Positions 17,883-62,912 of a stretch of 64,000 bases of DNA are shown in pieces; position 1 is the stretch's first letter; every line of letters starts with the position of its first letter. The position numbers were made by a program, and so were the translations under genes. The stretch is taken from NCBI RefSeq assembly GCF_018678075.1, contig NZ_JAHHIR010000028.1:62001-126000 (forward strand). Direction: 5' to 3'. The DNA comes from Epibacterium ulvae. Lineage in GTDB: Bacteria; Pseudomonadota; Alphaproteobacteria; Rhodobacterales; Rhodobacteraceae. Below the pieces are notes generated by a model. That model saw only the letters and a program-made list of their open reading frames with translations, was not told where the DNA came from and did not search any database.

Positions 17883-18147
17883 ACGACCGCTCCTTATATC
17901 GCGCCTTTTGGCGCTGTCCCGTCCCCCAGAATGAAAAGGGGCGGGTTGATCTGCTGCCACTGATCAACCCGCCTCCACGTCCCGCTGAGCGGGTGTCCGA
18001 CTGCGCGCGCCACCTGGGGGGATGTCTGCTCGCCCGCGCGCCGGATCTCTCTTTTGTCGAAAAAGCGAAGGCCTGTATGAAACCTGCTATTTTTTAGTTT
18101 TGGTTGGGGTCGTTTGCTGCCCCAGCTCTCCGTCTCTCGATGTAGAT

Positions 18148-18172
18148 AGGGATACTATGGGAATTAATGGGC
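18148..18172 (+). promoter_or_regulatory. Three-box MraZ operator over a candidate mraZ promoter
   Basis: The plus strand reads AGGGA-TACTA-TGGGA-ATTAA-TGGGC: three [AT]GGGN boxes with exact 5-base spacers. This is the architecture described for the E. coli MraZ operator. On the minus strand (mraZ direction) a TTGTCA at 18173-18178 abuts it. The boxes would therefore cover the spacer and -10 area of a sigma70-like promoter (possible -10 TATCCC, weak). Occupancy should block transcription. The implied leader to the mraZ TTG is about 260 bases. Confidence 0.65.
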
Positions 18173-18329
18173 TGACAACTATTATTTTCTAAATAGAGCC
18201 CCGAATATGAGCACACACACCCATGAACCACTCAGCTTGGCGCCTCATTTCAGTCACATTTCGGTCAATGTAGTGGGCAATTTGAACTAAATCACTACAT
18301 ATAGACACACACCGAGACATGCAAAAAGT

Positions 18330-18601
18330 TCCCATAAATTCCCGCCACTGCCGCCAACCTCGATCTGCGAAAACACACGTTCCCCATAAGTTCTCACACC
18401 ACCGGGCAAAATCCACCCAAAACGCCCAATTCAGGTGATTCGCTTCATCAAATTTTCGGAAATTCCCTGCATTTCCCATGCCGCCCACAAAATCCCAGCG
18501 CACAATAGAAAGAACCCGCCCCACAAACGTGCGACGGGTTCCCGTGTTTTCCCAAAAGTGCCGTAATTTCCCAAATTCGCCAGCACGTCCCATCTCATCC
18601 C
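18330..18601 (-). promoter_or_regulatory. Extended array of MraZ-box-like GGG repeats
   Basis: Between mrp and mraZ, minus-strand (T)GGG boxes recur at 9-10 base intervals in clusters. On the plus strand the CCC triplets start at 18331, 18341, 18383, 18416, 18425, 18465, 18475, 18484, 18494, 18541, 18551, 18570, 18589 and 18599. Degenerate members (CTC 18393, CCG 18561, CCA 18580) fill in-phase positions. Cluster-to-cluster distances of 23, 40, 42 and 47 bases are nearer whole helical turns than chance would require. I infer multiple MraZ sites; this has not been demonstrated. Confidence 0.5.
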
Positions 18602-18641
18602 ATTTTCGGAACAAAACTTCGGGACGTTAGGCCTGGGGACG

Positions 18642-19709: not shown

Positions 19710-19931
19710 TTTATCCACATCACTTTCCCGCGTTCCGCACATATAGATCCAGTTTCAGCAAGGCCCAATAGAGGCAAAGCAACGAATTTCGCTCGATTGT
19801 GGCAATAAAATCCAACCACGTATTAAAAAAAACGCATCCACGACAATTCGCGGCAAACTCGATCCAATCGCGGTGGTGGCCAATCCTGTGACCCATGCAC
19901 AAACCGCATAGCGGGCTTGCCAAGTCTGATA

Positions 19932-19959
19932 TTGTGCGAATGCAGCAATTGTTTATTTT
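19932..19959 (+). promoter_or_regulatory. Candidate promoter for the DUF1127/CcsR transcript
   Basis: TTGTGC (19932-19937) and TATTTT (19954-19959) are separated by 16 bases, about 50 bases upstream of the DUF1127 start. In Rhodobacter sphaeroides the homologous transcript is driven by RpoH-type sigma factors. I cannot discriminate a heat-shock promoter from a sigma70 promoter here with certainty. Confidence 0.35.
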
Positions 19960-20007: not shown

Positions 20008-20223
20008 ATGGCAACTGCACTGAACATCACACCGAGCGCACTGTCCAACACTGTGAACTCCGGCCTGGTTTTTGCTCTGGTTGCCAAGTGGAAAGCATAC
20101 CGCCTGTACCGCACCTCGCTGAACGAACTTCGCGCGCTGAGCAATGCAGACCTGGTCGATCTGGGTCTGTCGCGCAGCATGATCAAACGTGTCGCCCTTG
20201 AAGCGGCCTACGACGATATTTAA
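20008..20223 (+). CDS. DUF1127 small protein (CcaF1-like)
   Basis: A small basic protein ending in the DUF1127 segment: NELRALSNADLVDLGLSRSMI, with the conserved LSxxxLxDxGLxRxxI pattern. It is followed within 10 bases by four paired hairpins with anti-Shine-Dalgarno loops, exactly as the R. sphaeroides DUF1127 protein CcaF1 precedes CcsR1-4. CcaF1 is an RNA-binding protein reported to act in maturation and turnover of those RNAs, so the same role is inferred. The start is ATG 20008 (71 residues); ATG 19999 is possible, but its AAGAAAG is only two bases away. Confidence 0.88.
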   Translation: MATALNITPSALSNTVNSGLVFALVAKWKAYRLYRTSLNELRALSNADLVDLGLSRSMIKRVALEAAYDDI

Positions 20224-20232
20224 TTCAGAGAT

Positions 20233-20302
20233 CAGGTCCTTCTCCTCCTCCCTAGGGCCTGTACTTTAGCGACGACATCCTCCTCCTCCCTGATGTCGTC
20301 GC
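20233..20302 (+). ncRNA. CcsR/cuckoo-type sRNA, unit 1
   Basis: Two hairpins. The first (20233-20261) has a 7-bp stem CAGGTCC/GGGCCTG. The second (20269-20302) has a perfect 11-bp stem GCGACGACATC/GATGTCGTCGC. Both loops carry CTCCTCCTCCCT, complementary to strong Shine-Dalgarno sequences. This is the two-loop layout of the cuckoo RNA family, processed from the 3' end of the DUF1127 mRNA. Its first stem is unrelated to those of units 2-4, so it is the most diverged unit. Confidence 0.85.
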
Positions 20303-20331
20303 GACCTAACAACGGCCAATTGGCCATATAT

Positions 20332-20406
20332 ACATCGGGGCTCCTCCTCCCTTTGCTCCGATGTAAATAAAGCGACGGCACCTCTCCTCCTCCCTGGTGT
20401 CGTCGC
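20332..20406 (+). ncRNA. CcsR/cuckoo-type sRNA, unit 2
   Basis: Hairpin A: ACATCGGGG (20332-20340) with CTCCGATGT (20356-20364), one G-U pair, loop CTCCTCCTCCCTTTG. Hairpin B: GCGACGGCACC (20372-20382) with GGTGTCGTCGC (20396-20406), loop TCTCCTCCTCCCT. It is nearly identical to unit 3, 104-105 bases downstream. The G-U pairs that differ between units preserve the stems, which argues for RNA function. Confidence 0.87.
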
Positions 20407-20435
20407 GATCCAACAACGGCCAATTGGCCATAAAT

Positions 20436-20511
20436 ACATCGGGGCCTCCTCCTCCCTTTGCTCTGATGTAAATAAAGCGACGGCACCTCTCCTCCTCCCT
20501 GGTGTCGTCGC
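20436..20511 (+). ncRNA. CcsR/cuckoo-type sRNA, unit 3
   Basis: Hairpin A: ACATCGGGG (20436-20444) with CTCTGATGT (20461-20469), where C-to-T relative to unit 2 is tolerated as a G-U pair. Hairpin B: GCGACGGCACC (20477-20487) with GGTGTCGTCGC (20501-20511). Both loops display CCTCCTCCC. It is a tandem copy of unit 2 including the spacer. Confidence 0.87.
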
Positions 20512-20540
20512 GACCTAACAACGGCCAATCGGCCATATAT

Positions 20541-20620
20541 GCGTCAGGGCTCCTCCTCCCTTGCTCTGATGTTACAAAGAACGGTGGCACCCTCCTCCTC
20601 CCTGGTGTCACCGTTTTTTT
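20541..20620 (+). ncRNA. CcsR/cuckoo-type sRNA, unit 4 with terminator
   Basis: Hairpin A: GCGTCAGGG (20541-20549) with CTCTGATGT (20564-20572), several G-U pairs. Hairpin B: AACGGTGGCACC (20580-20591) with GGTGTCACCGTT (20604-20615), followed by a T tract, so the last hairpin doubles as the terminator of the whole transcript. The changed outer base pairs of hairpin B are compensated on both arms compared with units 2-3. Both loops keep CTCCTCCTCCC. Confidence 0.87.
20576..20620 (+). terminator. Terminator of DUF1127-CcsR transcript
   Basis: A 12-bp stem (20580-20591 with 20604-20615) and a run of seven T (20614-20620). The apical loop contains the anti-Shine-Dalgarno sequence, so this is both terminator and functional loop. 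Confidence 0.9.
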
Positions 20621-20775
20621 GTGTCTGGATCCATGAGATTGAACGTGGCTTTGCGGGCTGGGAACATGGCGACACCCTGCAAAGGGTCGCAAGCAACACG
20701 TGTTCAACCGTCGCGCGAAGATCTTTCCGCTGCTCTCTAGAAAAACGCGGAAATATCACAAATTCAACATGAGAC

Positions 20776-32983: not shown

Positions 32984-34336
32984 ATGGCACCCGTCGTGTA
33001 CCCTACAACCAATCTTGCGGCGACCGAACAGTTGAACCTGGTTCGCGGCGAAGGCATCTATGTGTTTGACGAAAAGGGCAATAAATTCATCGAAGGTATG
33101 GCCGGCCTGTGGTGCACCTCGCTTGGATATAGCAACAGCGAATTGGCTGACGCGATTGCTGCCCAATTGAACACCCTGCCGTTCTCTCATTCCTTTGGCG
33201 GCAAAACACACCCTGCCCTGATGGAACTGGCGCAAAAACTGAGCGATATGGTGCCTGTTGAGGACGCCTATATCTTCTTTGGCAATTCAGGCTCTGACGC
33301 CAACGACTCCCACTACAAGATGCTGCGTTATTACTTCAACGCTATTGGCAAGCCGGAAAAGCGCAAGATCATCACCCGTGAGCGTGGCTATCATGGGGTA
33401 ACGGTTGCCGCCGGTGCGTTGACGTCTTTGCCGGTTAACCTCGCCCATTTCGACGCCCCGGTGGAAGACCTGAACATCCTACGCACCGACGCGCCGCATT
33501 ATTACACGGGCCGCCAAGGCAATGAGACCGAGGCGCAATTTGTCGACCGGATCCTCAAGAACCTTGAGGACATGATCCTGGCCGAAGATCCGAACACTAT
33601 CGCTGCCATGATTGTCGAGCCGATCACCGGCGCGTCTGGCGTCATTGTTCCGCCCGAAGGGTATTACGAAAAGCTGCAAGAGATGCTGCGCAAGCATGAC
33701 ATCCTGATCTGGGCAGATGAGGTGATCTGCGGGTTTGGCCGTACGGGCAATGATTTTGGCTGCACCACGATGGGTATCAAACCCGACCTTATGAGTTTTG
33801 CGAAACAGCTCAGCTCGGCCTATTTCCCGATCTCTGCCTCCGTCATCCCGGGTTGGATGTACGAAGCGATGATTGAGCCGTCAAATCAGGCGGGCGTGTT
33901 TGGCCATGGATTTACCTATTCCGGCCACCCAGCCGCCTGTGCGGCCGCACTAAAGACGCTGGAAATTTATGAGCGCGACAAGATCTTTGAACATGCGGCG
34001 GATGTCGGCGACTATTTTCAGGCGCAGCTGCGGGAATCGTTCACCGATCACCCGCTGGTCGGCGAGGTGCGCGGCAAAGGATTGATCGCAGCGCTTGAAC
34101 TGGTATCGAACAAGACAACCGGAGCCAGTTTTGAAAAGGCCGCCGGAGGTGCTGCAGCGCAAAAAGCATGTGAAAAAAACGGCTTGATTTTACGGGCCGT
34201 CGGCGGCAACGCTTTGGCATTCTGCCCACCGCTGATCATCACAGTGGATGAAGTGAACGACCTCATTTCGCGCGTAAAAACATCTCTAGATCAGGCATTT
34301 ACGGATTTGAATGATCAAGGATTGATCGCCAACTAG
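32984..34336 (+). CDS. Class III pyridoxal-phosphate aminotransferase
   Basis: Fold type I omega-aminotransferase of 450 residues. MAGLWCTSLGYSN and FFGNSGSDANDSHYKMLRYY are typical of the putrescine/beta-alanine/taurine-pyruvate group. IWADEVICGFGRTG holds the PLP-binding Asp, and SFAKQLSSAY the Schiff-base Lys. GFTYSGHPAACAAA is the substrate-phosphate loop. The ATG at 32984 has AGGAGG at 32973-32978; an in-frame TTG at 32969 lies within the ribosome-binding site and is rejected. The amine substrate cannot be told from sequence. Confidence 0.93.
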   Translation: MAPVVYPTTNLAATEQLNLVRGEGIYVFDEKGNKFIEGMAGLWCTSLGYSNSELADAIAAQLNTLPFSHSFGGKTHPALMELAQKLSDMVPVEDAYIFFGNSGSDANDSHYKMLRYYFNAIGKPEKRKIITRERGYHGVTVAAGALTSLPVNLAHFDAPVEDLNILRTDAPHYYTGRQGNETEAQFVDRILKNLEDMILAEDPNTIAAMIVEPITGASGVIVPPEGYYEKLQEMLRKHDILIWADEVICGFGRTGNDFGCTTMGIKPDLMSFAKQLSSAYFPISASVIPGWMYEAMIEPSNQAGVFGHGFTYSGHPAACAAALKTLEIYERDKIFEHAADVGDYFQAQLRESFTDHPLVGEVRGKGLIAALELVSNKTTGASFEKAAGGAAAQKACEKNGLILRAVGGNALAFCPPLIITVDEVNDLISRVKTSLDQAFTDLNDQGLIAN

Positions 34337-57432: not shown

Positions 57433-58338
57433 TCACCCTTTCACTGAACCGGCGGTGAGGCCGCGGATGAAGTATTTGCCAGCAACGACGTAGACAAAAA
57501 GCGTAGGAAGCGCGGCGATGATCGCTGCGGCCATATCCACATTGTACTCTTTGACGCCAGTGGTGGAGTTGACGATATTGTTCAGCGCAACGGTGACAGG
57601 CTGGGTACCCGCCTGGCTGAAAGACACACCAAACAGAAAGTCGTTCCAGATCTGGGTGAACTGCCAGATGACCGTCACTACGATGATTGGCAGCGACAGC
57701 GGCATAAAGATCGACCAGAAGATGCGCAGGAAACTGGCGCCATCTACCTTGGCCGCTTTGGTCAGCTCAGCCGGAACCGTCACATAGTAGTTGCGAAAAA
57801 ACAGCGTGGTAAAGCCAAGCCCGTAGATCACGTGGACAAAGATCAGCCCCGGAATACTGCCCGCCAGCTGCATCATGCCCAGTACCCGTGCCATCGGCAG
57901 CAACACCACTTGGAACGGGATGAAACAGCCAAACAGCATCAAAGAGAAGATCAGGTTGGCCCCTTTGAATTTCCAATGGGCAATCACATACCCATTCAGC
58001 GCGCCAAGGATGGTCGAGATCGCAACCGCCGGAATGGCAAGAATGACCGAATTCCAGAAATAGGGACGCAGCCCTTCGCATTGAATGCCCGTACAAGCAC
58101 CGGACCAGGCGGTTTTCCAGGCGTCAAACGTGACCTCGCGCGGCAATGCCATCAGCGATCCGGTGCGGATTTCCTCAAGGCTTTTGAGGGATGTTGTCAG
58201 CATCACAAACAACGGCAACAGATAGTAGAGCGCAAAGAGGCCAAGGATCAGATAGAGGCCCAAACGCAGGGCGAGCTTGCCAAACCCGGTGTCGGATTTT
58301 GCGCTGCGCGCGGTTGAAGACATAGGGAGATCAGTCAT
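57433..58338 (-). CDS. gtsC: Sugar ABC transporter permease (MalG-like)
   Basis: Inner-membrane permease of 301 residues with six predicted helices and the EAA loop VPAELTKAAKVDGASFLRIFW that docks to the ATPase. The short extra periplasmic segment with CTGIQCEGLRP (two Cys) is characteristic of the glucose-transporter subgroup. Its start overlaps the preceding permease by eight bases. Confidence 0.92.
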   Translation of the reverse strand: MTDLPMSSTARSAKSDTGFGKLALRLGLYLILGLFALYYLLPLFVMLTTSLKSLEEIRTGSLMALPREVTFDAWKTAWSGACTGIQCEGLRPYFWNSVILAIPAVAISTILGALNGYVIAHWKFKGANLIFSLMLFGCFIPFQVVLLPMARVLGMMQLAGSIPGLIFVHVIYGLGFTTLFFRNYYVTVPAELTKAAKVDGASFLRIFWSIFMPLSLPIIVVTVIWQFTQIWNDFLFGVSFSQAGTQPVTVALNNIVNSTTGVKEYNVDMAAAIIAALPTLFVYVVAGKYFIRGLTAGSVKG

Positions 58339-59203
58339 TTTTCGCCCTCAGTTCTGAGTAGAGATAGGGAACAACGATGGTGAAAACGACCGCCATCATG
58401 ATCATCGCAGAGCTTGCCGCCTGACCAATGTCACCGCGCGAAAACGCCATGGCATACATGTAGGTCGCGGGCAGATCGGTGGCATATCCCGGACCACCGC
58501 CGGTAAGCGCGATCACCAGATCAAAGCTTTTGATCGCCAGGTGGGCCAGCACGATAAAGGCAGACAGGAAGATCGGCGCCATCGAGGGGATGATGATCGC
58601 CGTATAGATCCGCCAGGTGGGGATACCGTCGACCTGGGCTGCCTTGATGATCTCTCCATCCACAGAGCGCAGGCCTGCCAGGAACAGCGCCATCACAAAG
58701 CCCGAGCTTTGCCAGACAGCCGCAAGCACAACCGTGTAGAGCGCGTAGTCCGGGTTCACAAGCCAGTCAAAGGTAAAGTTCTCAAACCCCCAGCCGCGCA
58801 CGGTTGCCTCGAGTCCCAGACCGGGATTGAGGATCCATTTCCACGCAGTGCCGGTCACAATCATCGACAGCGCCATCGGGTACAGATAGATCGTGCGGAT
58901 CACCCCTTCGGTGCGCACCTGCTGATCGAGAAAGATCGCCAGCATCAGCCCCAGCACCATGGCGATCACGATAAACAGCGCGCCAAAGATAAAGAGGTTG
59001 TCCATCGCCGTATCCCAGCGCGGCGAGGCAAAGAGTTTCTCGTATTGGATCGTGCCCTTGAGTTCGTAGCGGGGCAGAAGTTTTGAGCGGGTAAAAGAGA
59101 CCCACGCCGTCCAGCCAATAAATCCATAGACAAAGATCAATATGGCGATGAAGGACGGGGCGAGCACCACCTTGGGCAGGTGATTTTCGAGCCAGTCAGA
59201 CAT
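58331..59203 (-). CDS. gtsB: Sugar ABC transporter permease (MalF-like)
   Basis: Inner-membrane permease of 290 residues with six hydrophobic helices and the EAA loop DGEIIKAAQVDGIPTWRIYTAIIIP. ALTGGGPGYATDLPATYMY is typical of CUT1 partners. A terminator-like hairpin lies between it and the upstream binding-protein gene. Confidence 0.92.
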   Translation of the reverse strand: MSDWLENHLPKVVLAPSFIAILIFVYGFIGWTAWVSFTRSKLLPRYELKGTIQYEKLFASPRWDTAMDNLFIFGALFIVIAMVLGLMLAIFLDQQVRTEGVIRTIYLYPMALSMIVTGTAWKWILNPGLGLEATVRGWGFENFTFDWLVNPDYALYTVVLAAVWQSSGFVMALFLAGLRSVDGEIIKAAQVDGIPTWRIYTAIIIPSMAPIFLSAFIVLAHLAIKSFDLVIALTGGGPGYATDLPATYMYAMAFSRGDIGQAASSAMIMMAVVFTIVVPYLYSELRAKND

Positions 59204-59216
59204 GATGTCCTCCCAT

Positions 59217-59251
59217 TAAAAAGCCGCCCCCACGCCGCGCATGGGGGCGGC
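59217..59251 (-). terminator. Attenuating terminator between binding protein and permeases
   Basis: Minus strand GCCGCCCCCA-(9)-TGGGGGCGGC followed by TTTTT: a perfect 10-bp stem directly after the binding-protein gene. Partial read-through would give more binding protein than permease, as is common in such operons. Confidence 0.88.
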
Positions 59252-59266
59252 CACATGATGTCAAGA

Positions 59267-60511
59267 TTAGTAGCTGTTGGCGACGGCGTCAGCGAGCATC
59301 TGCACCGCTTCGGCTGAGGACATGTCAGAGTTGAAATGCGCGGTCACAACGTCGGTGATCGCACCCGCCTGTGCGCCACGCAGCGCCATGCCATGGGCGT
59401 AAGACGGCAGCAGAGTTCCCCCTTCGGACGAAGATGTCATGTCAGCGGCTGACAGATGCGCACAGCTGTCAAACTCATCCAGAGCCACGTCAACACGCGC
59501 CGGGATTGACCCCTTGTTCAGGTTGAAAACCTTCTGGAAGTTCTGCCCCACGATCAGCTCGGCCAAGAGATCCTGACCGGCCTTTTTGTCGGCGCCGGCC
59601 ACATCAAACATCGCAAAGCTGTCGACATTGTACAGGAAGCCATCACCCGGCGTTGAAGCACACAGGAAGTCTTCGCCAGGCACTTTGCCTGCAGCCAGGA
59701 ACTCACCCTTGGCCCAGTCGCCCATGATCTGGAACGCCGCTTCGCCGTTCATGACCATCGCCGTGGCAAGGTTCCAATCCCGACCAGAGAAGTTGCCATC
59801 CACATAACCACGCAGGGTGCGCATCTGGTCGAAGGCCTGAACCATCGTGTCAGACGTCAGCGCATCGGTGTCCAGATCAACCAGTGCCTGCTGGAAAAAC
59901 TCCGCACCACCAACTCCCAACACAACAGCTTCGAACACGGTTGCGTCCTGCCAGGCTTGCCCGCCGTGGGCCAGCGGGGTGATGCCAGCAGCCGCCAGTT
60001 TTTCGGCAGCGGCGTTGAATTCGTCCCAAGTTGTGGGCATTTCAATTCCATTGGCAGCCAGCAGTTCGGCGTTTGCCCAGATCCAGTCGACGCGGTGCAC
60101 GTTGACCGGTGCGGCACACCAGCTTCCTTCGCATTTCATGTGGTTGGCAATGGATTCTGGCAGAACAGCGGCCCAGCCCGACGCCTCGGCCACGCTGGAG
60201 ATATCGGCCAGAACGCCTTCCTCGTACCATTCCTGAATGGCGGGGCCTTTCAGCTGAACCGCGGTTGGCGCATTGCCGGACAGGACACGTGCCCGCAGCG
60301 CGGTCATCGCAGCGTCACCGCCGCCACCGGCCACTGGCATATCCGTCCAGGTGCCACCTTTGGCTGCGAACTCTTGCTGGAGCACGGCCACGGATTTCGC
60401 CTCACCACCGGATGTCCAATAATGCAGGACTTCGGCTTCGGGGCCTGCGAATGCGGCGGATGCCGACGTTATGGCAAGGGCAGAGACTGCCGCAAATGCG
60501 GTGAATTTCAT
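59267..60511 (-). CDS. gtsA: Glucose/mannose-type ABC substrate-binding protein
   Basis: Periplasmic family 1 solute-binding protein of 414 residues with a cleavable signal (MKFTAFAAVSALAITSASAAFAG). The start of the mature protein, EVLHYWTSGGEAKSVAVL, and MPVAGGGGDAAMTALRARV with LKGPAIQEW closely match the Pseudomonas GtsA/Thermus glucose-binding subgroup. Glucose or mannose is therefore the probable ligand. GGGAGGA precedes the ATG at 60511. It is the first gene of the importer operon, divergent from a two-component system. Confidence 0.9.
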   Translation of the reverse strand: MKFTAFAAVSALAITSASAAFAGPEAEVLHYWTSGGEAKSVAVLQQEFAAKGGTWTDMPVAGGGGDAAMTALRARVLSGNAPTAVQLKGPAIQEWYEEGVLADISSVAEASGWAAVLPESIANHMKCEGSWCAAPVNVHRVDWIWANAELLAANGIEMPTTWDEFNAAAEKLAAAGITPLAHGGQAWQDATVFEAVVLGVGGAEFFQQALVDLDTDALTSDTMVQAFDQMRTLRGYVDGNFSGRDWNLATAMVMNGEAAFQIMGDWAKGEFLAAGKVPGEDFLCASTPGDGFLYNVDSFAMFDVAGADKKAGQDLLAELIVGQNFQKVFNLNKGSIPARVDVALDEFDSCAHLSAADMTSSSEGGTLLPSYAHGMALRGAQAGAITDVVTAHFNSDMSSAEAVQMLADAVANSY

Positions 60512-60735
60512 GTTAGATTTCCTCCCATTGGTGCCGCCCCTCCCGGGCAGCTGTGGCTCATCATTGTGAATGAAGGGGGCCTGTGACAACGTGCAATACA
60601 CCCGCCAGACGGATGCGAGGGCAGTTTTTGTGCGGTTTTGTTACGCCCTGTTACTTTGGCATTGATTTTGTTGCACAGCGTTACAATGACACAAGGAGGG
60701 AGCGCCAATTCATTGGCAAAAGGAGGAGAAGCACC
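60512..60735. promoter_or_regulatory. Divergent control region of sugar importer and two-component system
   Basis: 224 bases with strong ribosome-binding sites at both ends: GGGAGGA for the binding protein and AGGAGGAG (60721-60728) for the regulator. The region reads TTTTGTGCGGTTTTGTTACGCC, then TTGTTGCACAGCGTTAC; the recurring TGTTAC / GTTAC steps (60638, 60649, 60680) could be response-regulator half-sites. Confidence 0.4.
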
Positions 60736-61467
60736 GTGACGATTCCCCGACTGTTGGTCGTTGATGACGATGCAGAGATGCGCGCGATGATGGTGCAATT
60801 TCTGCGCCAGAACGGCTATATCGCCCTGCCCGCGTCTACTGAGGCCGAGATCCAGACCCTGATCAAAGACAACCGGGTGGATCTGGTGTTGCTGGATGTC
60901 ATGTTGGGGGATGAAAACGGGGTCGAGATCTGCGCCCGTCTCCGCAAGGATCGGGACGTGCCGATCATTCTGGTCTCGGCCCTGTCCGCAGATCACCAGC
61001 GCATGGCGGGGTATGAGGTTGGCGCCGATGACTATATCGCCAAGCCCTTCAATCCGGATCTGTTGCTGGCGCGGGTCAAGGCGGTTTTGCACCGTGCCCG
61101 CCGCAGCGCCTCGCTTATCTATCGCCGCAATACCGAAACGTTCCACTTTCAGGGCTGGATCTATGACGGCAAACGCGACGAGGTGCGCGCGCCTGATGGT
61201 GTGCAGGTGGCCCTGTCCAAACGGGAGACCGCCTTGCTCAAGGTGTTTCTGGCCAATCCCCATATCCCTTTGACTCGCGAAGAGATCGCCGCCGCGCTGG
61301 ATGTCACCGGCGACAGTGGCGGTGATGCGGCGGGGCGGGCCATCGATGTTCTGGTCGGACGGTTGCGCACCAAGGTCGAGGCCAACCCCAAAGACCCCAA
61401 GATGCTGCGCACCGAACGCGGTGTTGGCTATGTCTTCTCCGCGGATGTTGAGGTTGAAGCCAGTTGA
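60736..61467 (+). CDS. OmpR-family response regulator
   Basis: A 243-residue regulator. The receiver domain has VVDDDAEM (acidic pocket), the phosphorylated Asp in LVLLDVMLGDENG, the conserved Ser/Thr in ILVSALS, and Lys in YIAKPFNPD. The winged-helix output domain has ALSKRETALLKVF and RAIDVLVGRLRTKVE, ending RTERGVGYVF. The start is GTG 60736 behind AGGAGGAG. Its position suggests control of the sugar importer, as GltR controls gts in Pseudomonas. Confidence 0.93.
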   Translation: MTIPRLLVVDDDAEMRAMMVQFLRQNGYIALPASTEAEIQTLIKDNRVDLVLLDVMLGDENGVEICARLRKDRDVPIILVSALSADHQRMAGYEVGADDYIAKPFNPDLLLARVKAVLHRARRSASLIYRRNTETFHFQGWIYDGKRDEVRAPDGVQVALSKRETALLKVFLANPHIPLTREEIAAALDVTGDSGGDAAGRAIDVLVGRLRTKVEANPKDPKMLRTERGVGYVFSADVEVEAS

Positions 61468-62912
61468 GGGCGCGCGCGCTTTCATTGCGCCGTTTGGGGC
61501 AGATCTGGGTTCTGGTTGCGGCTCTGTCCGGCGTACTCTTTAGCGGGGTCTGGATTGGGTCATCGCGTGCTTGGGATCGACATCTGACCCAGAGTTTTGT
61601 TGCGGGCTTTTCCTTATATGAAGCCCTGCGCCAAGGCACGCCCCTGCCACAGGACATTCGCGCAGAGCCAATGTCGCATGAACAATCCGCGTTGGCCGAA
61701 GCGGGGCGGTTTGAACGGTTAAACCAAGCCCCTCACCCGGCCTATGTCACCAACCTGTCGATCCATTCCAGCAGTATCGATCCCTTGCTGGGGGATACGC
61801 TGACCCTGGCCATTGTGTCGGACCGGCTGCGCTACCGTGTGGGCGACATCACGCCGCGTGCGGAGGCAAGTGCCGCTGAAAAGCTGGGGAATGTCACGCA
61901 GATCCTCGCGACCTATTGTTCGAACCCGGTGATTTACGCACGCTATGGGCTGGGGCCCTGGTTGCAGGTGAACGGCACATCCATCTGGGGCTGCAGCGCG
62001 CGGCCCACCGATTGGCGCCTACCGGCTGCTTTTGGTCTGTTTCTGGTTATGGCGGTCTTGTTGTCGCAAGTGGTGCGTGTCGCCAGCCTGTTCGAAGCTT
62101 TTGCCCGCCGCCTGCGGCAGCACCGACGTCTGGGCGGGCCAGAAAGCTATGAAAGCGACGGCCCATCTGAACTGAAAGAAGTTGTAGAGGCGGTGAACCT
62201 CTACCTTGAGGCCGAACATGACAGCCTGTCGAAACGGGCGGTGGTTCTGTCCGGTATCAGCCATGATCTGGGCACCCCTGCCACCCGGTTACGGCTGCGC
62301 GCCCGCCTGATCGAGGACGCCGCGCTGCGCTCAAAACTCGAAGGCGACATCGACCAGATGACCGGTATGATCGAAAGCGTCCTGACCTACACACGCGCTG
62401 AATTGAACCTGGAAGAGCCGCGCGAATTGTCCCTGTCGTCCTTGGTCGAAGCCTTGGTGGACGACTACCGCGATGTGGGCCATCCGGTGGATTTGGTCGA
62501 AAACGCCCCGCTTGTGGTGCACGGCATGGGCTCGCTGTTTCAATCGCGCAAAGGGTCCGCAACCATCCCTCAGGATCGCCGTGTCATTGTCACCTGTCGC
62601 CCGGTGGGGCTGCAAAGGGCCCTGTCAAACCTGATCGACAATGCAATCAAATATGGTCGCACCGCGCGGGTGACCTTGCAGGCCGACAGCCGCTTTGCCA
62701 CCGTTTTGATCGAGGACGAAGGCACCGAATTCACCCTGGACGACATCAACCGCATGATGGCCCCGTTTCAGCGCGGCCATAACACCACCCAGATCGAAGG
62801 CACCGGTCTGGGGCTTTCCATCGTGGTTACAATCGTGTCGATCCACGGCGGCACTTTGACGTTTGAACAGGGGGATGTGGGGCTGCGCGCACGGGTTGTT
62901 CTGCCCCGGTGA
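61464..62912 (+). CDS. Membrane sensor histidine kinase
   Basis: A 482-residue kinase with two membrane helices (about 12-30 and 190-206) flanking a periplasmic sensor of about 150 residues, then HAMP-like linker. The H-box is SGISHDLGTPATRLRLR, the N-box is LSNLIDNAIKYG, and the G-boxes are LIEDEG and IEGTGLGLSIV. The start is a TTG (61464) overlapping the response-regulator TGA, so the two are coupled. Sugar or binding-protein sensing is inferred from context. Confidence 0.9.
   Translation: MRARALSLRRLGQIWVLVAALSGVLFSGVWIGSSRAWDRHLTQSFVAGFSLYEALRQGTPLPQDIRAEPMSHEQSALAEAGRFERLNQAPHPAYVTNLSIHSSSIDPLLGDTLTLAIVSDRLRYRVGDITPRAEASAAEKLGNVTQILATYCSNPVIYARYGLGPWLQVNGTSIWGCSARPTDWRLPAAFGLFLVMAVLLSQVVRVASLFEAFARRLRQHRRLGGPESYESDGPSELKEVVEAVNLYLEAEHDSLSKRAVVLSGISHDLGTPATRLRLRARLIEDAALRSKLEGDIDQMTGMIESVLTYTRAELNLEEPRELSLSSLVEALVDDYRDVGHPVDLVENAPLVVHGMGSLFQSRKGSATIPQDRRVIVTCRPVGLQRALSNLIDNAIKYGRTARVTLQADSRFATVLIEDEGTEFTLDDINRMMAPFQRGHNTTQIEGTGLGLSIVVTIVSIHGGTLTFEQGDVGLRARVVLPR

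What the first reader, a model, noticed from the sequence alone, without database searches (positions are those of the whole stretch)
20233..20620. Four tandem CcsR/cuckoo sRNAs with eight anti-Shine-Dalgarno loops behind a DUF1127 gene
Eight consecutive hairpins, in four pairs with about 104-base period, each display CTCCTCCTCCC in the loop, while stem bases vary in compensatory or G-U-preserving ways. The unit count (four), the paired layout and the position after a DUF1127 gene match CcsR1-4 behind ccaF1 in Rhodobacter sphaeroides. The loops here are longer CU runs than the CUYCCUCCC motif reported there. Within the window, AGGAGGAG before the response regulator and GGGAGGA before the sugar-binding protein are perfectly complementary and would be candidate targets.
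Basis: partly seen in the sequence, partly recalled or inferred. Interest (0 to 1): 0.8.

Follow-up and report, generated by a model that had tools for sequence, protein, structure and literature searches.

The report
Anti-Shine-Dalgarno sRNA array with storage-polymer switch
This is a marine-bacterium copy of a known stress operon, a tiny RNA-binding protein followed by four small RNAs that can mask ribosome-binding sites, and comparing relatives suggests that its promoter is switched by PhaR, the sensor of the cell's carbon-storage polymer.

Summary
Window 20233-20619 contains eight hairpins in four pairs, each showing CTCCTCCTCCC in its loop, directly behind a DUF1127 gene and ending in a T-run. 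All four units match Rfam CcsR1 (E 2e-8 to 1.5e-6) but stay below the gathering score; so do most units of the best-scoring CcsR1 loci. This is a cuckoo/CcsR "CIN1" locus, a known kind. Four units is not a family constant.

Two things were missed. First, a small third hairpin separates the units. Second, the promoter carries a conserved TGC/GCA dyad module. A matrix trained on sites behind phaC (phasin promoter) finds it upstream of 57 of 70 DUF1127 loci, against 1 of 137 control windows. The dyad overlapping the -35 is intact in 62 of 64 PhaR-positive loci where the module was found (69 examined). It is broken in 3 of 3 complete genomes that carry the array but lack PhaR and PHB synthase. Two incomplete such genomes (89%, 71%) keep it.

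Inference: PhaR, the PHB sensor, controls this anti-Shine-Dalgarno operon. My searches (capped listings) showed no paper saying so.

The parts
19904..19914 (.). S1 dyad, CCGC-ATA-GCGG; CTGC-N3-GCAG in many relatives (degenerate here)
   Evidence: conserved position in relatives; own copy scores -24 on the phaP matrix
19932..19947 (.). S2 dyad TTGTGC-N4-GCAGCA, predicted PhaR operator overlapping the -35
   Evidence: one of only two perfect matches in the 4.09-Mb genome, the other before a thiolase (phaA) gene; rank 1 of 63985 positions in the window with the phaP matrix opened by one base
19932..19937 (+). putative -35 TTGTGC
   Evidence: conserved in relatives; inference
19954..19959 (+). putative -10 TATTTT, 16 nt from the -35; CATNTT-type in the best CcsR1-scoring relatives
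   Evidence: inference
20008..20223 (+). DUF1127 protein, 71 aa from ATG 20008 (74 aa from ATG 19999), CcaF1-like
   Evidence: PF06568 E 1.7e-10; start chosen from the alignment
20233..20261 (+). unit 1 hairpin A, anti-Shine-Dalgarno loop
20267..20304 (+). unit 1 hairpin B
   Evidence: CcsR1 36.7 bits for unit 1
20314..20325 (+). spacer hairpin 1, GGCC-AATT-GGCC
   Evidence: spacer hairpins in relatives
20327..20369 (+). unit 2 hairpin A
   Evidence: CcsR1 40.9 bits for unit 2
20372..20406 (+). unit 2 hairpin B
20418..20429 (+). spacer hairpin 2, GGCC-AATT-GGCC
20435..20470 (+). unit 3 hairpin A (units 2 and 3 are 96 of 105 identical)
   Evidence: CcsR1 40.6 bits for unit 3
20477..20511 (+). 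unit 3 hairpin B
20523..20534 (+). spacer hairpin 3, GGCC-AATC-GGCC
20541..20572 (+). unit 4 hairpin A
   Evidence: CcsR1 34.5 bits for unit 4
20576..20619 (+). unit 4 hairpin B, running into T7: also the intrinsic terminator

Best explanation
This is a CIN1 (cuckoo RNA) locus. One promoter transcribes a DUF1127 RNA-binding protein mRNA followed by four two-hairpin sRNAs, and transcription stops at the last hairpin. RNase E most likely cuts the precursor in the AU-rich stretches beside the small spacer hairpins, freeing RNAs of about 75 nt. Each RNA exposes two CUCCUCCUCCC loops that pair with GGAGG-rich Shine-Dalgarno sequences, with Hfq and the DUF1127 protein helping, and lowers translation of many metabolic mRNAs. 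Inferred and new: the promoter is under PhaR, which sits on the -35-overlapping dyad and leaves when PHB granules titrate it, so the array is made when carbon is stored. Shown here: anatomy, structural conservation, family match, and PhaR-type dyads and their co-variation with PhaR. Taken from R. sphaeroides papers: co-transcription, RNase E processing, Hfq, the FlhR target, the RpoHI/HII promoter. Not shown in this organism: expression, processing, targets, PhaR binding.
For: Eight hairpins and fold z -14.4. CcsR1 covariance hits on 4 of 4 units. Compensatory stem changes. DUF1127 upstream. Of the 80 best named DUF1127 loci (of 485, query made of array-linked proteins), 78 have at least one CCTCCTCCC hairpin downstream. 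CcsR1 matches (E <= 0.01) in 334 of 394 family genomes. Spacer hairpins: 132 spacers of 22-48 nt from 71 loci, mean z -1.93, 73 of 132 reached by at most 5 of 100 shuffles. Promoter: CTGC-N3-GCAG is the top dyad behind phaC (28 of 30 genomes; 0.35 expected) and second of the dyads upstream of the DUF1127 match (41 of 71; 0.7 expected; the first, TGCA-N5-TGCA, 46 of 71, overlaps it). Matrix score >= 8 in 57 of 70 upstream regions, 1 of 137 control windows, 0 of 70 shuffled. S2 intact in 62 of 64 against 0 of 3 (Fisher 2e-4). R. sphaeroides PhaR binds CTGCNNNGCAG (PMC12542648, passage). R. sphaeroides biology from passages of PMC10253847, PMC8307010, PMC7866481, PMC8625941.
Against: No unit reaches Rfam's gathering score. 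No expression data. The window's own S1 is degenerate. CTGCNNNGCAG alone is common, 147 places in the genome against 51 for the reversed control, so only the composite module is specific. Two incomplete PhaR-less, PhaC-less genomes (G256, 89%; G199, 71%) keep S2. L042 (Leisingera, PhaR not tested) has lost S2, and PhaR-positive L132 and L269 lack an intact S2. Related promoters are not independent, and only three complete PhaR-less genomes carry the array.
Confidence: 0.82

Rival explanations
1. The hairpins are a protein sponge: eight CU-rich loops titrate an RNA-binding protein (the DUF1127 protein itself, Hfq or another), as CsrB does for CsrA (comparison from general knowledge), and mRNA pairing is secondary.
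For: Multi-loop array with near-invariant loops and free stems: of 501 loops found with the pattern CCTCCYCC, 390 read CCTCCTCCC and 108 CCTCCTCCT. Hairpin number varies from 0 to 16 per locus in 71 loci. The co-transcribed DUF1127 protein binds RNA in R. sphaeroides.
Against: The loop is the exact complement of a strong Shine-Dalgarno. R. sphaeroides CcsR RNAs are reported to target flhR mRNA and to be processed from the precursor. Unrelated ar8 sRNAs are thought to use an anti-Shine-Dalgarno 10-mer on many targets.
Confidence: 0.1
2. The dyads bind a different TGC-specific factor, or are only an extended RpoH-type promoter, and PhaR has no role.
For: R. sphaeroides ccaF1-CcsR has an RpoHI/RpoHII promoter. 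S2 overlaps TTG of the -35, which RpoH needs. The S1 centre is nearly fixed (ATA or ATG), unlike the phaP sites. The window's S1 is degenerate.
Against: A matrix trained on sites behind phaC finds the sites. Tandem spacing is alike (mostly 28-30 there, 30.5-31.5 here). The only other perfect S2 in the genome lies before phaA. In three complete PhaR-less genomes the dyad is gone where a TTG remains (the finder required TTG). Arrays with too little room for a DUF1127 gene between promoter and first hairpin also have dyads there (L134 both, L137 one).
Confidence: 0.3
3. The array is only a long attenuator or 3' stabiliser of the DUF1127 mRNA, without trans function.
For: The last hairpin is a terminator and the array starts 9 nt behind the gene.
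Against: Loops are conserved while stems drift. In L236 the array follows the promoter without a DUF1127 gene, and L134 and L137 have no room for one. R. sphaeroides CcsR RNAs act in trans.
Confidence: 0.05

Closest known systems
CcsR1-4 / ccaF1 of Rhodobacter sphaeroides (CIN1 locus, cuckoo RNAs; Rfam RF02791)
   Same: DUF1127 gene followed by tandem two-hairpin RNAs with anti-Shine-Dalgarno loops, terminator at the end; significant covariance match of all four units
   Different: Stems differ and no unit reaches the gathering score. Four units are a local expansion: 13 of 16 same-genus loci with an array show four hairpins, two show eight. The -10 is TATTTT rather than the CATNTT type of the best CcsR1-scoring loci. 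PhaR control is not in the passages I read
ar14 (RF02344), with SmelA075/SmelA099 of Sinorhizobium meliloti as a comparable array
   Same: ar14 covariance matches of 47.4 and 47.0 bits over parts of the array. SmelA075/099 have three and four hairpins, each with CCUCCUCCC loops (PMC3927594 passage). That the two names mean one family is my recollection
   Different: Hairpins in a single transcript there; here repeated pairs behind a DUF1127 gene; below the ar14 gathering score of 58.8
MmgR / ar8 sRNAs (SisA-D in Caulobacter)
   Same: Anti-Shine-Dalgarno 10-mer; mmgR has a dyad between -35 and -10 and is repressed by AniA/PhaR
   Different: Different RNA family; no DUF1127 partner or hairpin array in the passages seen
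phaP promoters (PhaR operators)
   Same: Tandem CTGC-N3-GCAG dyads mostly 28-30 nt apart
   Different: Here the second dyad has N4 spacing and overlaps TTGTGC

Membership tests
CIN1 locus / cuckoo (CcsR) RNAs | CUYCCUCCC motif in the loop of each hairpin | tested here: met
   8 of 8 loops
CIN1 locus / cuckoo (CcsR) RNAs | two hairpins per unit, stems variable but paired | tested here: met
CIN1 locus / cuckoo (CcsR) RNAs | short DUF1127 gene directly upstream on the same strand | tested here: met
   PF06568 1.7e-10; gene ends 9 nt before the first stem
CIN1 locus / cuckoo (CcsR) RNAs | significant full-length match to the CcsR1 covariance model | tested here: met
   4 of 4 units, E 2e-8 to 1.5e-6 in an 851-base search; the four best matches of the whole own genome, next E 0.06
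Rfam RF02791 as curated (not treated as the defining test of the wider kind) | gathering score 65.3 bits | tested here: not met
   34.5-40.9 bits. Control: over the five best-scoring loci L111-L115 only 7 matches reach it although those loci show 4, 14, 9, 8 and 7 hairpins; 17 of 394 family genomes have any match above it
CIN1 locus / cuckoo (CcsR) RNAs | co-transcription and RNase E processing into 70-80-nt RNAs, Hfq binding | not testable with these tools
   no RNA data; published for R. sphaeroides
CIN1 locus / cuckoo (CcsR) RNAs | RpoHI/RpoHII promoter | tested here: inconclusive
   TTG at -35 present, -10 reads TATTTT; the best CcsR1-scoring relatives read CATNTT
PhaR regulon | PhaR-type dyads at the promoter | tested here: met
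   S2: rank 1 of 63985 in the window and one of two perfect genome matches. S1 degenerate in this genome
PhaR regulon | PhaR present in the genome | tested here: met
   PF07879 E 9.4e-28 in the pha cluster
PhaR regulon | PhaR binding and PHB-dependent expression | not testable with these tools
   needs gel shift and deletion strains

The most novel reading that the evidence does not exclude
Throughout Rhodobacteraceae the anti-Shine-Dalgarno cuckoo/CcsR locus belongs to the PhaR regulon. PHB granules titrate PhaR off a -35-overlapping operator and so release an array of ribosome-site-masking RNAs plus an RNA-binding protein. Carbon storage thereby reprograms translation, in parallel with PhaR control of the unrelated anti-Shine-Dalgarno sRNA MmgR in rhizobia.
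Probability: 0.62. Interest if true: 0.66.

Novelty: new member of a known kind. Interest (0 to 1): 0.5.

Why it matters
CcsR/cuckoo RNAs are very widespread in Rhodobacteraceae (334 of 394 genomes) and are described as stress RNAs under RpoH. If PhaR also controls them, a storage polymer becomes a direct input to a broad translational regulator. That could help explain why in R. sphaeroides they affect C1 metabolism and pyruvate dehydrogenase. It would also make PhaR control of anti-Shine-Dalgarno sRNAs a theme shared by two unrelated RNA families. The prediction can be tested with one gel shift and one deletion strain.

Tried and rejected
Rejected or reduced: 'loops longer than in R. sphaeroides' (1-2 bases against the Rfam consensus). 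Rejected: 'unit count four is a match'; 13 of 16 same-genus loci with an array have four hairpins, L009 three by my pattern, and only G000 and G002 have eight, by extra internal copies; 71 named loci range from 0 to 16 hairpins. Not used as evidence: the perfect complements at 60721 and 60520. They sit at ribosome-binding positions, but 8 such 7-mer places lie outside the array and four start codons of ORFs of at least 100 aa are near one; any strong Shine-Dalgarno fits the loop. Considered: the GGCC-AATT-GGCC palindromes as DNA operators; the relatives show instead a changing but paired stem.

Weaker or failed tests: RNAalifold misplaced the third hairpin and the spacer hairpin, because MAFFT shifted those columns, so pair counts cover hairpins 1, 2 and 4 only. 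The spacer set was chosen by length and holds a few stretches that are not clean spacers (for example in L091). The matrix sites were taken with the pattern CTGC-N3-GCAG from the 350 nt behind phaC after the dyad search; that this is a phaP promoter was checked by Pfam only in the own genome. phaA upstream regions carry the N4 dyad at about -105 to -135 in only 7 of 30 genomes. The first regex census of S2 missed real sites: of its 8 'no S2' loci, L009 has the perfect 16-mer and L054 a TTGCGC variant, L134 an S2-type dyad; L042 has really lost it (PhaR untested). PhaR-positive exceptions: L132 and L269 (module found, S2 not intact); L134, L137, L263, L282, L290 (no module by the fixed-offset rule; L134 has both dyads, L137 and L290 a CTGC-N3-GCAG dyad close to the array). 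The module finder requires TTG, so 'TTG remains' is partly by construction. The 69 PhaR-positive loci are high scorers of the CcsR1 search, not a random draw, and I skipped some hits near contig ends. Of 15 genomes without a PhaR match, 4 have a PhaC match and are probably only incomplete; G394 has a weak CcsR1 hit without hairpins; five (G066, G123, G169, G314, G411) have no CcsR1 hit at E 0.1 and no PhaC, and G066 is only 74% complete.

Full report
What is there. The stretch 20233-20619 holds eight stem-loops in four pairs, all with CTCCTCCTCCC in the loop. Copies repeat every 103-105 nt and units 2 and 3 are 96 of 105 identical. The fold energy of 20224-20625 is 14 standard deviations below shuffled sequence. 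The last hairpin runs into T7 and serves as terminator. The DUF1127 gene (PF06568, 1.7e-10) ends 9 nt before the first stem; the alignment with relatives puts its start at ATG 20008, giving 71 residues, the length given for CcaF1 of R. sphaeroides. Neighbours are an Mrp-type P-loop NTPase on the left and a UvrD/PcrA helicase on the right.

Family. A permissive Rfam scan of the 851-base region gives CcsR1 (RF02791) on all four units, 34.5-40.9 bits, E 2e-8 to 1.5e-6, and ar14 (RF02344) at 47.4 and 47.0 bits. In the window nothing but three tRNA genes reaches a gathering score. The control explains this: in the five loci with the highest CcsR1 scores (103.8-106.6 bits), the scan at gathering threshold marks 7 units although those loci show 4, 14, 9, 8 and 7 hairpins. 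In the own genome the four best CcsR1 matches are these units, the next at E 0.06. Among 394 family genomes 334 have a match at E 0.01. Passages of PMC10253847 describe this arrangement as the CIN1 locus, with co-transcription from an RpoHI/RpoHII promoter and RNase E processing. The papers that define the cuckoo family, CcsR and CcaF1 are not held, so I know them only through citations.

Relatives. The genus is Tritonibacter or close to it: named loci whose contigs have the same length as same-genus hits are T. litoralis, T. aquimaris, T. mobilis, T. multivorans and others. Loops stay while stems change. In 22 two-unit loci 97.9% of stem cells pair, with 33 double-change cells against 9.7 by shuffling and at most 6 when partners are slid. 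The loop core reads CCTCCTCCC in 390 of 501 hairpins found with the pattern CCTCCYCC, and CCTCCTCCT in 108. Of 16 same-genus loci with an array, 13 have four hairpins; G000 and G002 have eight, by internal copies shared between the two. G009 and G015 (both 99% complete) have no CcsR1 match better than E 0.07 and no promoter module.

A third hairpin. Between units lies a short GC-rich stem with a loop that lacks the CU motif: GGCC-AATT-GGCC here, CCGGC..GCCGG, CCGGG..CCCGG or GGGCC..GGCCC elsewhere. Over 132 spacers of 71 loci, chosen by length, the mean z is -1.93, and in 73 at most 5 of 100 shuffles fold as well. It is flanked by an AU-rich stretch. I infer that it separates units for RNase E and protects the new ends; this is not shown.

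The promoter. Aligning 15 same-genus upstream regions gave one strongly conserved block. It has S1, in the wider family often TGCTGCATAGCAGCATTG, and about 31 bp further S2, ATTGTGCANNNGCAGCA. S2 overlaps a TTG -35 and is followed by TATNTT, or by CATNTT in the highest-scoring CcsR1 loci. A regex found S2 in 108 of 116 loci and S1 upstream of it in 107, with centres 31.5 or 30.5 apart in 98. R. sphaeroides PhaR is reported to bind CTGCNNNGCAG (PMC12542648, passage). I tested this without using the locus itself. In the 350 nt behind phaC of 30 genomes (the phaP promoter in the own genome) the top four-base dyad is CTGC-N3-GCAG, 28 of 30 against 0.35 in shuffles. Upstream of the DUF1127 match the same dyad is second (41 of 71 against 0.7), after TGCA-N5-TGCA (46 of 71), which overlaps it. 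A matrix from 53 of the phaC-side sites scores at least 8 in 57 of 70 regions upstream of the DUF1127 matches, in 1 of 137 control windows of the same loci and in 0 of 70 shuffled regions. The phaC-side sites are also in tandem, 28-30 apart in 20 of 25 neighbouring pairs. In the own genome TTGTGCN4GCAGCA occurs perfectly twice: here and before a thiolase gene (phaA). The composite S1 core-S2 pattern occurs exactly once in 15 of 18 genus genomes, each time beside the CcsR1 hits, and not in G009, G015 or G006; G006 has the array with intact S2 and a diverged S1. The own genome encodes PhaR within 3.5 kb of phaP and phaC.

Natural knock-outs. PhaR is missing in 15 of 394 family genomes. Three complete ones lack PhaC as well and still carry the array: G020, G183, G341. 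In all three S2 is broken although the module position is recognisable. In the 64 PhaR-positive loci where the module was found (69 loci of 69 genomes examined), 62 have both half-sites and 55 are perfect. Fisher's exact test gives 2e-4, without correction for kinship; the three belong to three genera. Against this, G256 (89% complete) and G199 (71% complete) lack both genes in the assembly and keep S2; counting them as PhaR-less gives p 0.002. Two genomes with PhaC but no PhaR match keep both half-sites. Arrays in L134 and L137 have dyads within about 125 bp of the first hairpin, too close for a DUF1127 gene between, and in L236 the array follows the promoter without DUF1127, so the promoter seems to go with the RNA.

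Limits in the window itself. S1 here is CCGC-ATA-GCGG, a symmetric but poor match (score -24); only S2 is a good site. The short motif alone is not specific, 147 places in the genome against 51 for its reversed control.

Mechanism. The most likely chain is: stored PHB binds PhaR, the operator is freed, the precursor is transcribed (with RpoH or the main sigma factor), it is cut into single RNAs, and their loops cover Shine-Dalgarno sequences. The first part is inferred from sites and co-variation; PhaR titration by PHB is published for S. meliloti and others. The second part is published for R. sphaeroides, except that pairing through the loops here is inferred. The parallel is MmgR: an ar8 sRNA with an anti-Shine-Dalgarno 10-mer (PMC12559287 passage) whose promoter dyad between -35 and -10 is controlled by AniA/PhaR (PMC8401924 and PMC12542648 passages).

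Novelty. The array is a new member of a known kind. I saw the PhaR link in no listing or passage: 'PhaR' with 'DUF1127' (9 of 9 listed), two of PhaR, CcsR, cuckoo RNA, CcaF1, RSP_6037 (10 of 344 listed), three of PhaR, Rhodobacterales, regulon, binding motif (10 of 1,296 listed); an open-access library only. The spacer hairpin had no search of its own. Regulon databases could not be checked.

Noticed in passing
17961-18641 (- strand): About 680 bases upstream of mraZ (PF02381) without a clear gene, with several TGGGA boxes at about 18330-18600. R. sphaeroides makes the sRNA UpsM from this 5' UTR, so a homologue is likely.
   Followed up: partly
30177, 32476, 32731: Three tRNA-Gly(GCC) genes with identical scores within 2.7 kb.
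   Followed up: no
34150-34164: TGCTGCAGCGCAAAA, the best position in the window on the phaP matrix (16.3); possible further PhaR site.
   Followed up: no
58331-61485: Three of the four start codons near a 7-nt complement of the loop lie together here: a response regulator, a solute-binding protein and an untested ORF (58331-59203) beside an ABC permease gene.
   Followed up: partly
L159 centre: A second DUF1127 gene of the own genome with TTATGCACCTGCAGCA upstream (one mismatch to S2); no array looked for.
   Followed up: no
L162 centre: Perfect TGCTGC-N3-GCAGCA before a UPF0262 gene of the own genome, a possible PhaR target of unknown function.
   Followed up: no
L236: PhaR-less genome with three anti-Shine-Dalgarno hairpins behind the promoter and no DUF1127 gene between.
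   Followed up: partly
L070, L091, L035: Arrays with 16, 14 and 12 anti-Shine-Dalgarno hairpins (Mesobaculum, Limimaricola, Pseudoruegeria).
   Followed up: no
window 20227-20307: Weak similarity (E 0.32) to 6C RNA, a family I recall as an unrelated two-hairpin RNA with C-rich loops; probably convergent or chance.
   Followed up: no
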